Shown piece after piece: positions 2,777-26,654 of a stretch of DNA of 64,000 bases. How positions within the stretch are numbered: position 1 is the stretch's first letter; the number at the start of each line of letters is the position of its first letter. Below the pieces are notes generated by a model. It ran no database searches. It saw nothing but the letters and a program-made list of their open reading frames with translations, and was not told the DNA's origin. This DNA is from an uncultured Lachnospiraceae bacterium (GTDB lineage Bacteria > Bacillota > Clostridia > Lachnospirales > Lachnospiraceae), in contig CACZJZ010000008.1 in assembly GCA_902781655.1 (NCBI GenBank), positions 45,109 through 109,108 on the forward strand, in the 5' to 3' direction. The translations under genes were made by a program, and so were the position numbers.

Positions 2777-4075
2777 TCATTTCACCTCCGCGTTCCCATA
2801 CGGATATCCCTCGTTGAAATTGCGCGCGTTTTCCATCGTGACCGCAGCGATGGCCTGCAGCGCCTCTCTGGTGAAGAAAGCCTGATGAGAGGTCAGAATC
2901 AGCTGTGGGAAGCTGAGCAGTCTCGCCGTGATGTCATTGGTCAGCGGCTCATCAGAGCGATCCGTATAGACATTATCATCCTCTCCCTCGTAGACATCGA
3001 GCGCCACCGCATGGAACTTGCCCTGCTTCATGGCCGCGATCAGCGCCTCCGTGTCGATAAGGCCGCCGCGCGAGGTGTTCACCAGCATGCACGAATCCTT
3101 CATCAGAGAGATCGCCTTCCCGTCGATCAGGTGGTAGGTTCCGTTCTCTCCCATGATAAGCGGCGCATGCAGCGAGATCAGATCCGCCTTCCGGAGCAGT
3201 TCCTCCTTTGAGACATATGTCAGCAGTCCTTCCTCCTCCAGCGCCTTGTTCGGATAGGCGTCCCAGCCGAGCACGGTCATGCCATACCCCTTGCAGATGC
3301 GCGCCATGCACTGCCCGATCCGGCCCGTCCCGACGATACCGGCGACCTTGTTGTGCAGGTCCAGCCCCAGCAGCCCGCTGAGGGCAAAATTATTGTCCTT
3401 GACCTTGAAATATGCCTTGTGAATCCGGCGGTTCGCCGCCTGAAGGATCGTCATCGCGTGTTCCGCCACCGCATACGGAGAATAAGCCGGTACGCGCAGC
3501 ACAGTGATGCCATATTCCTCCGCCGCCTTCAGATCCACATTGTTAAAGCCCGCGCAGCGCAGCAAAATCAGTTTCACGCCGCCGTTGTGCAGTGTCTCAA
3601 TGACTTCCCGCGGCGCCTCGTCGTTCACAAAGATACATACCGCGTCGAATCCGTTTGCGAGATGCGCCGTCTCGGGCGTCAGCCGGCTCGTAAAATACCG
3701 GATATCTGTATTGTAGGTACCCTCTCCCTTGTCCTTGGACAGCTCGCTGAAGAACAGTCTGTCGTAATCCTTCGTGCCGAAGAACGCCACCTTCAGAACG
3801 GACACCTTCCGATCCTTCGGCGCGATCTCCTTCAGGACCTCCTGCAGCTTTGCCGCCGCAGTTTCCTCGTCCGGACCCTCCACGGTAAACTTCAGAAGGG
3901 TGCCCTTCACAGCCTGAAGCTTCAGAATCTGCAGAACATTGCTTCCGCCTGCCGTCTCTCCATTCGCCTCCAGCGTCACGGCACTTTTGAATTCCGTGCA
4001 TGCCTGCGCAATCAGCGCAGCCGGGCGTGCATGAATGCCGAGTGCATTCTTGACATGATATTCAAAGGTTTTCAT
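2777..4075 (-). CDS. fusion of HPr phosphocarrier domain and D-lactate dehydrogenase
   Basis: A 432-residue single frame with two full domains. Residues 1-90 are HPr: GIHARPAA places the EI-phosphorylated histidine at His15 with Arg17, and GGSNVLQILKL aligns with the HPr-kinase Ser46 site (Ser45 here). Residues 95-432 are a D-2-hydroxyacid dehydrogenase of the D-lactate type: N-terminal KVAFFGTKDYDRLFF, NAD loop GTGRIG (249-254), catalytic Arg336 in NTSRGG, Glu363 in DVYEGE, His397 in TSHQAFF. The ATG at 4075 follows AGGAGAGGAGGAGC. It lies 37 bases after the DUF438 gene, probably in one operon. The dehydrogenase should reduce pyruvate to D-lactate with NADH. A PTS-linked control of it through the HPr part is inference. 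Confidence 0.9.
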   Translation of the reverse strand: MKTFEYHVKNALGIHARPAALIAQACTEFKSAVTLEANGETAGGSNVLQILKLQAVKGTLLKFTVEGPDEETAAAKLQEVLKEIAPKDRKVSVLKVAFFGTKDYDRLFFSELSKDKGEGTYNTDIRYFTSRLTPETAHLANGFDAVCIFVNDEAPREVIETLHNGGVKLILLRCAGFNNVDLKAAEEYGITVLRVPAYSPYAVAEHAMTILQAANRRIHKAYFKVKDNNFALSGLLGLDLHNKVAGIVGTGRIGQCMARICKGYGMTVLGWDAYPNKALEEEGLLTYVSKEELLRKADLISLHAPLIMGENGTYHLIDGKAISLMKDSCMLVNTSRGGLIDTEALIAAMKQGKFHAVALDVYEGEDDNVYTDRSDEPLTNDITARLLSFPQLILTSHQAFFTREALQAIAAVTMENARNFNEGYPYGNAEVK

Positions 4076-4112
4076 GATAAAGCTCCTCCTCTCCTTCTGC
4101 GGTTTAACACCA

Positions 4113-5510
4113 TCAATCTTCGAAGCTCTGCGGCGCGGTTTTTGCAAAATGCTCCTTCGCCGCGTCCATATTCTGGACGTACTCCATCGAACCGACGAAA
4201 GCGCCCTGTTTGTCCCGAACCGCCATGTAGCGGACAAGATAAGTATGCCCGTTTTTCTCAGTCCAGACGTCCACGCTGTCCCGTTTCCCTTCCTTGAACG
4301 AGGTAAGGATCATCCGGACCATCTCCTCCACCTTGGGCGGATGGCAATAGTATACCTCACGGTCGAGCGCCTGCAGCGGGCGTTTGAACGCCTTTGGCCC
4401 CTCCCCGCGGTTGAAATAACGGTTGATATCGTCCGCGTCGATGAACGAAATCTCGCCTGGAATCGTATCAAGCATCGCCGTCAGCTGCGATTTTGTCAGA
4501 TGTCCGGACGGAAATACCACCTCATCGTCCCCCGCTGCGCCGCCGTCCGCCTGTGTCTGCGCCCCCGGCTTCCGCTCCTTCCGCGGCGCGGCGGCCTGTC
4601 CGGGCTGCTCCATGTCCCGGTCAGTCTGACCAGACTGCGTTCCCTTCCATTCCGGCGAATCCTTCCAGACCGGCGCATTCTCCGCAAGCTTCCACAGGGG
4701 CTGTCTCCCGATCAGGCACGGCTCATAATCCTGCAGGTCCATCGCCATCTGCACCCACTCCGCACGAGTCAGATTCTGAATGCAGATCGGATACAGGATG
4801 TTTCTCTCCTTGTAGATCATCTCCTGAACCCGGGTGATCAGCTTCAGCGCCCGGTCCTTCCACTGCTCATCTGTCAGGACAGTTCCTGTACCGCCGCTGA
4901 GATTGCGGATTTCCGCCCGGATCTCGTCATCGACGCCCCACATCACATCCGACGGACCGGATACATCATGCTTCGATTTGAGAAGCGGATAGATCAGATC
5001 TCCCTTTGCGGCATAGTGGAGACTGACCGCACGCAGGACACGGAACTCCTTTTTGGCCGCATCCATCGAAGCCTCCCCCGGCACCGCGTTCTCCAGCAGT
5101 TCCTTTACTCTGCCTGCCTCCTCCTCAATGGCGTCGTCCTCCTTCATGAAGACACTGAGCGGATGCCCCGGGATCGCAGCCAGCTTCTGCAGCTGGCTTT
5201 TCGCCAGCTCACGCATATTTCTTCCCATCCCCGGCGCCTGCCGCTCCGCAGCTGTGGATACCGCGATCTTCTCCTCGTTCGTCGCTCCATGGAAGAGAGC
5301 CGAGTGCACATCGCACAGCTTCTGCACCTTCTGATAGGACACTCCGGCCTGCATCAGCGCCTGCTCCGCTTTCATGATCTCCGATGCATCCACATCCTTG
5401 AAATGTGCGACAAAATCCTTCCTGACCTGCTCCAGGTCCTCTCCTGCCGACAGCCGCTCCACATAACTTCTGAGCAGCTCCTGCCTCTCCTCATCTCTGT
5501 TCTGAATCAT
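4113..5510 (-). CDS. DUF438 / hemerythrin-like / PAS domain protein
   Basis: 465 residues. The N-terminal 20-85 region (EDLEQVRKDFVAHFKDVDASEIMKAEQ type) matches DUF438. Residues about 95-240 form a hemerythrin-like helical bundle with GHPLSVFMKEDDAI, LHYAAKGDLIYPLL and MIYKERNILYPIC, giving His and Glu candidates for a di-iron site. A charged low-complexity linker (about 265-315) leads to a PAS-like domain (about 325-460, FIDADDINRYFN...DREVYYCHPPK...GSMEYVQN). Members of this family are thought to sense redox state or oxygen, but no function is proven. There is no membrane segment. The ATG at 5510 has AGGAGG at good spacing. It directly precedes the HPr-lactate dehydrogenase gene. Confidence 0.85.
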   Translation of the reverse strand: MIQNRDEERQELLRSYVERLSAGEDLEQVRKDFVAHFKDVDASEIMKAEQALMQAGVSYQKVQKLCDVHSALFHGATNEEKIAVSTAAERQAPGMGRNMRELAKSQLQKLAAIPGHPLSVFMKEDDAIEEEAGRVKELLENAVPGEASMDAAKKEFRVLRAVSLHYAAKGDLIYPLLKSKHDVSGPSDVMWGVDDEIRAEIRNLSGGTGTVLTDEQWKDRALKLITRVQEMIYKERNILYPICIQNLTRAEWVQMAMDLQDYEPCLIGRQPLWKLAENAPVWKDSPEWKGTQSGQTDRDMEQPGQAAAPRKERKPGAQTQADGGAAGDDEVVFPSGHLTKSQLTAMLDTIPGEISFIDADDINRYFNRGEGPKAFKRPLQALDREVYYCHPPKVEEMVRMILTSFKEGKRDSVDVWTEKNGHTYLVRYMAVRDKQGAFVGSMEYVQNMDAAKEHFAKTAPQSFED

Positions 5511-26273: not shown

Positions 26274-26301
26274 TTTACTTTCACGGAAAATCGGATATAA
26301 T
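26274..26301 (+). promoter_or_regulatory. promoter of the HPr-like gene
   Basis: A perfect TATAAT at 26296-26301 with a weak -35 (TTTACT) 16 bases upstream. The leader to the ATG is about 105 bases. Confidence 0.6.
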
Positions 26302-26414
26302 ACAATGGAAACCGGGAGAAAACGATTTCCGTAATCCCTGACACGTGGATATTCGCACCCCGGATATTTGATCCATTGATATGCGAATGCGATTCGCGGA
26401 AAGTGAGGCACGAT

Positions 26415-26654
26415 ATGACAGTACATAAGCTGGTCAGACTGACCAGGGAGAGTGCCGCGGATTTTGTACGCGTCGCTTCCCACTGCGATTTTGACATTGA
26501 TATTGCTAATGCAGACGTTACCAGCTACACAGTGGACGCCAAATCCATGCTCGGTGTGATGGGACTCAACTTCAGAAGGCCGATGATGGTTTCTTACAGC
26601 GGCTATAACAGAGATTTGGAAGAGTTCCTCTCCGACAACGCGGCGGTCGCATAA
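26415..26654 (+). CDS. HPr-like (Crh-type) protein lacking the phospho-histidine
   Basis: 79 residues. The region VDAKSMLGVMGLNFRRPMMVSYSG aligns with the Ser46 region of Firmicute HPr (LKSIMGVMSL...). The N-terminal part, where HPr has the G-HARP loop with His15, reads TRESAADFVRVAS and has no histidine there. It therefore cannot carry PTS phosphate but could be a substrate of HPr kinase and act as a CcpA corepressor, as Crh does in Bacillus. That role is inference. The ATG at 26415 has GTGAGG six bases before. It has its own promoter and a strong terminator. Confidence 0.8.
   Translation: MTVHKLVRLTRESAADFVRVASHCDFDIDIANADVTSYTVDAKSMLGVMGLNFRRPMMVSYSGYNRDLEEFLSDNAAVA

What the first reader, a model, noticed from the sequence alone, without database searches (positions are those of the whole stretch)
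2777..4075. HPr phosphocarrier fused to D-lactate dehydrogenase
One uninterrupted frame holds an HPr domain with the phospho-accepting His15 and Arg17 and a Ser in the HPr-kinase region, then a full D-lactate dehydrogenase with NAD loop and Arg/Glu/His triad intact. HPr is normally free and soluble. A covalent link would let the PTS phosphorylation state, or HPr kinase acting on fructose-1,6-bisphosphate, act directly on lactate formation. I know of no described enzyme with this layout. That makes it a candidate for direct coupling of sugar uptake to fermentation end-product choice.
Basis: partly seen in the sequence, partly recalled or inferred. Interest (0 to 1): 0.85.

Follow-up and report, generated by a model that had tools for sequence, protein, structure and literature searches.

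The report
Lactate-making enzyme carrying a sugar-uptake phosphocarrier
In a group of gut and rumen bacteria, an enzyme that probably turns pyruvate into D-lactate is permanently joined to a small phosphate-carrying protein of the sugar-uptake system, which suggests a built-in switch linking the state of sugar metabolism to lactate production.

Summary
Window 2777-4075, minus strand, is one 432-residue frame: an HPr domain (3-82), a linker of about 10 residues, and a complete LdhA-type D-lactate dehydrogenase (94-432). It is not an assembly error: 18 of 37 genomes of the genus carry it, and all 80 kept loci of a species-wide scan (partly the same genomes) encode it, including isolates of Mitsuokella, Selenomonas, Lactimicrobium, Floccifex and Eubacterium pyruvativorans. 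Both halves form single clades, so one fusion probably arose once and spread between families. The HPr halves drift to 29% identity, yet Gly13, His15, Ala16, Arg17 and Pro18 are identical in 81 of 81 with varied codons: the EI phosphorylation site is under strong selection. Best reading: EI phosphorylates the attached HPr and so reports PEP/pyruvate balance and PTS flux to the pyruvate-consuming enzyme. The regulatory effect and its direction are inferred, not shown. The open-literature searches listed no description. A new variant of known parts, worth testing at the bench.

The parts
2777..4075 (-). HPr-D-lactate dehydrogenase fusion gene, 432 aa plus stop
   Evidence: open frame; Pfam PTS-HPr, 2-Hacid_dh and 2-Hacid_dh_C in one chain; same fusion in 18 of 37 same-genus genomes and 80 of 80 kept loci
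3830..4069 (-). HPr domain, residues 3-82; His15 and Arg17 in GIHARP
   Evidence: G13 H15 A16 R17 P18 invariant 81/81
3797..3829 (-). linker, about residues 83-93, poorly conserved sequence
   Evidence: last HPr helix ends at 83 and the first LDH strand starts at 94 in the model; mean majority fraction 0.49 for 86-93
2780..3796 (-). LdhA-type D-lactate dehydrogenase domain, residues 94-432; NAD loop 249-254, Asp272, Arg336, Glu365, His397, Phe149, Tyr198
4076..4112 (-). 37-base gap to the upstream gene, with ribosome-binding sequence
4113..5510 (-). upstream neighbour: DUF438 + hemerythrin + PAS protein; context only, found beside the fusion in 1 of 80 loci (L037)

Best explanation
It is a fermentative D-lactate dehydrogenase with an on-board PTS phosphocarrier that serves as a regulatory sensor. 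Enzyme I, using PEP, phosphorylates His15 of the attached HPr domain. Because EI and HPr work reversibly with PEP and pyruvate, and because PTS sugar uptake drains phosphate from HPr, the phosphorylated fraction reports the PEP:pyruvate balance and PTS flux. The phosphorylation state then changes activity or pyruvate affinity of the dehydrogenase domain to which it is tethered by about 10 residues. Most likely the unphosphorylated form (low PEP:pyruvate, sugar flowing) favours lactate formation and the phosphorylated form restrains it. Shown: the fusion, its conservation, invariance of the EI site, integrity of the LDH site, genes for EI and for separate HPr proteins, absence of Ser46. Inferred: phosphorylation of this HPr by EI, its effect on LDH, and its direction.
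For: Both domains over the Pfam cut-offs in one chain. Same fusion in 18 of 37 same-genus genomes and in 80 of 80 kept loci, none with an early stop. The HPr halves fall to 29% pairwise identity (median 53%), yet G13, H15, A16, R17 and P18 are 81/81, with 2 His, 4 Arg, 4 Ala, 4 Gly and 4 Pro codons in use (many rows are close kin, so 81 is not 81 independent cases). HPr positions of the EI/EII-binding face (18 positions, list recalled) are more conserved than the other 67: mean entropy 0.85 against 1.52, permutation p 0.003. EI N-domain in 26 of 29 fusion genomes. The window's genome has an EIIC frame, an HPr with His15 and EI within about 2.4 kb on contig C15, so phosphoryl donor and drain are present. 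LDH determinants are kept: Arg336, Asp272 81/81; Glu365 79/81; His397 80/81 with one gap; Phe149, Tyr198 37/37 sampled. Precedents: dephosphorylated HPr binds and stimulates pyruvate kinase A in Vibrio vulnificus (PMC5987630, passages); individual PTS steps are reversible and EI supports pyruvate-to-PEP flux in E. coli (PMC5290146, passages); tetrameric D-LDHs of this type are allosteric with physiological effectors uncertain (PMC4230899, passages).
Against: No experiment or computation here shows that the HPr domain touches or regulates the LDH domain; coordinates and aligned error of the model were not available. A separate HPr-family match exists in 17 of 17 fusion genomes searched (17 of the 29), and one with His15 was read in 16 of them (not in G006), so this HPr is not needed for transport. 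EI is as common in non-fusion genomes of the genus (9 of 9 searched, of 19), so its co-occurrence adds little. One fusion genome, G006 (93% complete), has no PF02378 EIIC match; 16 of 17 fusion and 8 of 9 non-fusion genomes do. The linker is poorly conserved. The active-site stretch 363-368 is the least certain part of the model. No conserved neighbour gene points to PTS control. In Eubacterium pyruvativorans and one relative the LDH carries Thr at 249 and Gln at 365.
Confidence: 0.55

Rival explanations
1. Docking or channelling: the HPr domain recruits EI (or EII at the membrane) so that pyruvate made by EI is handed to LDH. Phosphorylation is part of the docking cycle, not an allosteric switch.
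For: His15 and the recalled EI-binding face are conserved; EI makes pyruvate when it phosphorylates HPr (established PTS chemistry); LDH uses pyruvate.
Against: Pyruvate is abundant and diffusible, and much of it comes from other reactions (general knowledge); no sequence evidence of an EI-LDH interface beyond the HPr face.
Confidence: 0.16
2. Spare phosphocarrier: the HPr domain passes phosphate between EI and EIIA like ordinary HPr, and the LDH domain works independently; the tether only co-expresses two activities.
For: Motif and carrier face intact; EIIC, HPr and EI genes side by side in the window's genome.
Against: A separate His15 HPr was read in 16 of 17 fusion genomes; the fused HPr clade sits on a long stem of 1.45 changes per column, which suggests a changed role but does not prove it; the fusion is kept across families.
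Confidence: 0.13
3. Structural role: the HPr domain helps folding, solubility or oligomerisation of the LDH, and phosphorylation is irrelevant.
For: Other positions are also invariant (A23, A42, L53, G58 81/81).
Against: A purely structural domain would not need His15, Arg17 and Pro18 invariant while the rest drops to 29% identity; unfused LdhA relatives, up to 61% identical, do without it.
Confidence: 0.09
4. HPr-kinase control: HPr kinase, stimulated by fructose-1,6-bisphosphate, phosphorylates a serine of the attached HPr and so sets LDH activity.
For: HPr kinase gene in 23 of 29 fusion genomes including the window's.
Against: Position 46 is Asn 78, Asp 2, Arg 1 of 81; Ser or Thr at 45 in only 6 of 81; kinase not found in four fusion genomes reached through named isolates, whose completeness was not told.
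Confidence: 0.03

Closest known systems
Allosteric tetrameric LdhA-type D-lactate dehydrogenases (Fusobacterium nucleatum 5z21/6abi, Pseudomonas aeruginosa 5z20/6abj, Escherichia coli 5z1z/3wx0)
   Same: Best solved relatives by sequence and by fold (43-45% identity); same catalytic and pyruvate-selectivity residues as unfused members sampled.
   Different: [quoted passage not shown] The fusion adds HPr at the N terminus and lies on its own branch (stem 0.72).
Free HPr (PtsH) of Firmicutes
   Same: Same Pfam family, HPr order of strands and helices, GIHARP motif with His15 and Arg17.
   Different: Fused to an enzyme; position 46 Asn rather than Ser. The window genome's own HPr beside EI also lacks Ser46: it has Lys.
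Crh-type HPr-like regulators
   Same: Regulatory HPr relatives that need not transport sugar (recalled); the window's genome has a similar protein, Asp15 with Ser46, about 4 kb from HPr kinase.
   Different: The opposite choice of sites: the fusion keeps His15 and drops Ser46.
HPr-pyruvate kinase A regulation in Vibrio vulnificus
   Same: Phosphorylation state of HPr at His15 tunes an enzyme of the pyruvate node (PMC5987630, passages).
   Different: There HPr is free and binds transiently; here the link is covalent and the partner is LDH.
Multidomain PTS proteins (FruB/FPr, EI-HPr-EIIA fusions) and transporters with EIIA tails such as LacS (recalled)
   Same: PTS phosphocarrier domains built into larger chains.
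   Different: Those partners are PTS components, regulators or transporters; here it is a cytosolic redox enzyme.

Membership tests
LdhA-type D-lactate dehydrogenase (LDHD subfamily of 2-hydroxyacid dehydrogenases) | catalytic and NAD-binding domains over curated cut-offs | tested here: met
   PF00389 and PF02826. No NCBIfam equivalog cut-off for a D-LDH was reached among the 25 models listed (e.g. PRK12480 180.5 of 579 bits), so the curated models do not name it
LdhA-type D-lactate dehydrogenase (LDHD subfamily of 2-hydroxyacid dehydrogenases) | Arg/Glu/His catalytic residues | tested here: met
   Arg336 81/81, Glu365 79/81 (Gln in 2), His397 80/81 with 1 gap
LdhA-type D-lactate dehydrogenase (LDHD subfamily of 2-hydroxyacid dehydrogenases) | Asp in the cofactor loop (NADH preference) and Phe51/Tyr pyruvate-selectivity positions | tested here: met
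   Asp272 81/81; Phe149 and Tyr198 37/37 fused and 33/33 unfused; roles from PMC6303947 passages; that Phe149 is E. coli Phe51 rests on my counting along the alignment
LdhA-type D-lactate dehydrogenase (LDHD subfamily of 2-hydroxyacid dehydrogenases) | NADH-dependent reduction of pyruvate to D-lactate | not testable with these tools
   needs an assay
HPr (PTS-HPr, PF00381) | family profile over cut-off and HPr order of strands and helices | tested here: met
   74.9 bits against 23, TIGR01003 74.1 against 47.9; strand-helix-strand-strand-helix-strand-helix in the model, residues 2-83
HPr (PTS-HPr, PF00381) | phospho-accepting His15 with Arg17 | tested here: met
   81/81
HPr (PTS-HPr, PF00381) | phosphorylated by EI with PEP | not testable with these tools
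   EI N-domain gene found in 26 of 29 fusion genomes, reaction not tested
Kinase-regulated HPr/Crh of Firmicutes (Ser46 target of HPr kinase) | Ser at position 46 | tested here: not met
   Asn 78, Asp 2, Arg 1 of 81
Kinase-regulated HPr/Crh of Firmicutes (Ser46 target of HPr kinase) | HPr kinase in the same genome | tested here: inconclusive
   23 of 29 fusion genomes; not found in 4 reached through named isolates and in 2 incomplete ones

The most novel reading that the evidence does not exclude
A fermentation enzyme with a built-in PEP:pyruvate sensor: EI writes the PTS phosphorylation state onto a covalently attached HPr that has been stripped of HPr-kinase control, and this sets the flux from pyruvate to D-lactate. 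The module arose once and spread between unrelated gut and rumen anaerobes.
Probability: 0.45. Interest if true: 0.85.

Novelty: new variant of a known kind. Interest (0 to 1): 0.72.

Why it matters
The allosteric sites and physiological effectors of LdhA-type D-LDHs are described as uncertain (PMC4230899, passages). A phosphocarrier welded to the enzyme gives a concrete, testable candidate input and would tie the PTS to the choice of fermentation product without transcription. It occurs in cultured anaerobes from environments where D-lactate matters for rumen acidosis and cross-feeding (recalled), so the test can be done with strains that are at hand.

Tried and rejected
Sequencing or assembly artefact: rejected, many assemblies and several isolate genomes carry the fusion. 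Longer N terminus: the frame is open beyond 4237, but the stretch upstream of Met at 4075 overlaps the next gene and the ribosome-binding sequence sits at 4075. HPr-kinase control: rejected.

Conserved operon: a first neighbourhood clustering (48 of 80 loci plus the window) kept only the longest frame at each place, so antisense frames hid real genes, the window's DUF438 gene among them. I repeated it with all frames over 100 aa in 80 loci plus the window: no neighbour cluster occurs in more than 15 of 81, several clusters of 10-12 loci come from one largely shared group of loci, and the window's five nearest neighbours were each found in 1 of 80 loci (L037). Only 52 of the 81 have 2 kb or more on both sides, so rarer links can be missed.

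EI co-occurrence as evidence: weak, since 9 of 9 non-fusion genomes searched also have EI. Fusion as the only LDH everywhere: no; the L-LDH profile matches in 12 of 17 fusion genomes (4 of 17 over the curated cut-off) and not in 5, the window's among them. Promoter/terminator scan: 4 promoter-like sites (2.1 expected) and 4 terminator-like sites (3.7 expected), no use made of them; Rfam: two tRNAs in the window.

Literature: nine searches of the open library. Seven were aimed at the fusion or at HPr-enzyme links, two at background. No title or abstract start in the lists shown describes the fusion; searches list only the best 20 of 36, 15 of 23, 10 of 12 and 10 of 68 papers. Four papers were read in passages (PMC6303947, PMC4230899, PMC5987630, PMC5290146), PMC13099321 as abstract and outline; the rest as listings. 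Subscription papers, preprints and domain databases such as InterPro were not searchable.

Full report
What is there. The minus strand of window 2777-4075 encodes 432 residues without a break. Pfam places PTS-HPr at 3-82, 2-Hacid_dh at 121-427 and 2-Hacid_dh_C at 210-399, all over their cut-offs. NCBIfam's HPr family model is over its cut-off, but none of the 25 of 37 models listed names the dehydrogenase half at its own cut-off. The start at 4075 follows a GGAGAGGAGGAG sequence. The closest solved proteins are D-lactate dehydrogenases of the LdhA type; 185 distinct solved sequences matched, and in the 60 shown the best stretch never starts before residue 90, so none covers the HPr part. An AlphaFold2 model from 65 fused sequences has mean pLDDT 85.3 and pTM 0.75, with HPr elements at 2-83 and the first LDH strand at 94; residues 363-368, which hold catalytic Glu365, fall below 50. 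Foldseek ranks the Pseudomonas, Salmonella, Fusobacterium and E. coli D-LDHs highest, and the 50 rows shown are enzymes of this superfamily. Coordinates and aligned-error data were not available, so I say nothing on how the two domains pack.

It is real and widespread. Of 37 genomes of the genus (own included), 18 carry the full fusion at 77-100% identity; none of the 24 genomes from other families of the order in the same call shows one. In 392 genomes of the order 3 have it, counting the window's; in 398 of the phylum 3, counting the window's (matches to E 1e-110 only). A scan of one genome per species found 109 relatives; the best 80 were kept and 29 were not seen. All 80 match over at least residues 6-431 at 70-98% identity. 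The two search peptides lie in the dehydrogenase half, near its start, so HPr was not asked for; but one of them contains an insertion seen mainly in fusions, so the scan leans towards them. None of the 80 has an early stop; 8 have TTG or GTG at the aligned start, and in one (L114) the aligned start is no start codon. L103, from a metagenome bin, lacks a stretch around His397. Isolates include Mitsuokella multacida, M. jalaludinii, Selenomonas montiformis, Lactimicrobium massiliense, Floccifex porci, [Clostridium] spiroforme, Lachnoclostridium sp. An131 and Eubacterium pyruvativorans, from several families.

One origin, then spread. In a tree of 70 LDH domains, 37 fused rows (the window, 34 of the 80 loci and 2) form one side of a branch against 33 unfused LdhA rows (34 loci fetched, L030 left out), SH-aLRT 100, stem 0.72. 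Lachnospiraceae and Erysipelotrichaceae rows interleave and Selenomonadaceae lie inside the group. The HPr halves also form one clade (23 rows, SH-aLRT 99, stem 1.45) against 20 free HPrs from 17 genomes; five further free HPr loci whose motif my script did not find were left out. Both are quick trees without bootstrap, the HPr tree on 87 columns. Family labels of metagenome bins can be wrong, but the named isolates alone span several families. Neighbouring genes are mostly not shared: no neighbour cluster occurs in more than 15 of 81 neighbourhoods, and the window's five neighbours were found in 1 of 80. The gene appears to travel alone.

What selection protects. Over 81 fusions (the window and 80 loci, many of them close kin) the HPr half is the more variable one: mean majority fraction 0.67 against 0.84 for LDH, pairwise identity down to 29%. 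Yet Gly13, His15, Ala16, Arg17 and Pro18 never change, while their codons do: CAT 57 and CAC 23 for His15, four codons for Arg17 (80 loci). The 18 positions of the EI/EII-binding face, a list I recalled, are more conserved than the other 67 (entropy 0.85 against 1.52; p 0.003 by permutation). In the LDH half Arg336 and Asp272 are 81/81, Glu365 79/81 and His397 80/81 with one gap. Phe149 and Tyr198, which I equate with residues said to restrict the pocket to pyruvate (PMC6303947, passages), are 37/37 in the sampled fusions and 33/33 in unfused relatives.

What is missing. The HPr-kinase serine. Position 46 is Asn in 78, Asp in 2 and Arg in 1 of 81; Ser or Thr stands at 45 in 6 of 81. The window's Ser45 is one of those 6 and is not the kinase position. 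HPr kinase was found in 23 of 29 fusion genomes and 9 of 9 non-fusion genomes searched. The six misses are all fusion genomes: the two Mitsuokella, S. montiformis and E. pyruvativorans, whose completeness was not told, and two that are 71% and 77% complete. In the window's genome the HPr beside EI also has Lys at 46, and a protein with Asp15 and Ser46 lies about 4 kb from HPr kinase, so kinase-type and EI-type duties appear split between proteins. Some other fusion hosts do keep a free HPr with Ser46, for example Mitsuokella and Lactimicrobium.

Setting. The EI N-domain was found in 26 of 29 fusion genomes (misses are 73-88% complete) and in 9 of 9 non-fusion genomes searched, out of 19 in the genus, so its presence is expected but not diagnostic. 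An EIIC of PF02378 was found in 16 of 17 fusion genomes, not in G006, and in 8 of 9 non-fusion ones. In the window's genome EIIC, HPr and EI lie within about 2.4 kb on contig C15. That EIIC is the only PF02378 match there; that it is fructose-specific would be my inference from the layout. Of 17 fusion genomes searched for HPr, all have a separate HPr-family match, and a separate HPr with His15 was read in 16. The window's genome has no match to the L-LDH profile, and its next 2-hydroxyacid dehydrogenase listed is 35% identical. The fusion is therefore probably its main NAD-dependent lactate dehydrogenase. Elsewhere it need not be: 12 of 17 fusion genomes have L-LDH profile matches, and G027 also has two unfused LdhA-type enzymes.

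How it most likely works. EI phosphorylates the attached HPr at His15 when PEP is high relative to pyruvate; PTS sugar uptake and pyruvate accumulation remove the phosphate. Individual PTS steps are known to be reversible, and EI supports pyruvate-to-PEP flux in E. coli (PMC5290146, passages). I propose that unphosphorylated HPr favours the active LDH form, by analogy with dephosphorylated HPr stimulating pyruvate kinase A in Vibrio vulnificus (PMC5987630, passages); the sign could be the reverse. The tetrameric D-LDHs of this type are allosteric, their physiological effectors are called uncertain, and they are said to have no additional domain (PMC4230899, passages). Shown here: architecture, conservation, site integrity, support for a single origin. 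Not shown: phosphorylation, inter-domain contact, any effect on catalysis.

Novelty. Both parts are known families and HPr is known to regulate enzymes by binding, so this is a new variant rather than a new kind. Seven searches of the open library aimed at the fusion or at HPr-enzyme links listed no paper describing it; subscription papers and domain databases were out of reach, and automated databases may already list the architecture.

Noticed in passing
window 26301-26651 (+): A second HPr-like protein in the same window (PF00381, 28.5 bits), lacking the GIHARP motif but with a Ser46-like DAKSMLGVMGL stretch; role unknown.
   Followed up: partly
window 4113-5510 (-): DUF438 + hemerythrin HHE + PAS protein 37 bases upstream of the fusion, possibly co-transcribed here; found beside the fusion in 1 of 80 loci (L037).
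   Followed up: partly
L099 7847-9145 and L109 8001-9293: In Eubacterium pyruvativorans and one relative the fused LDH has two changes at sites otherwise invariant among the 81 fusions, Thr at 249 in the NAD loop and Gln at 365 in place of the catalytic Glu, which may mean altered catalysis.
   Followed up: no
L002 (own genome, contig C20), L155, L158: HPr-like proteins with Asp in place of His15 and with Ser46, encoded about 4 kb from HPr kinase: Crh-like. The HPr beside EI in the window's genome has Lys at 46.
   Followed up: partly
L003 (own genome, contig C3): HPr-like protein with HLGP in place of HARP (Arg17 replaced by Gly) and with Ser46.
   Followed up: no
L103 8001-9203: Fusion from a Selenomonas bovis metagenome bin, 401 residues, lacking a stretch around His397 while staying in frame; assembly fault or a broken enzyme.
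   Followed up: no
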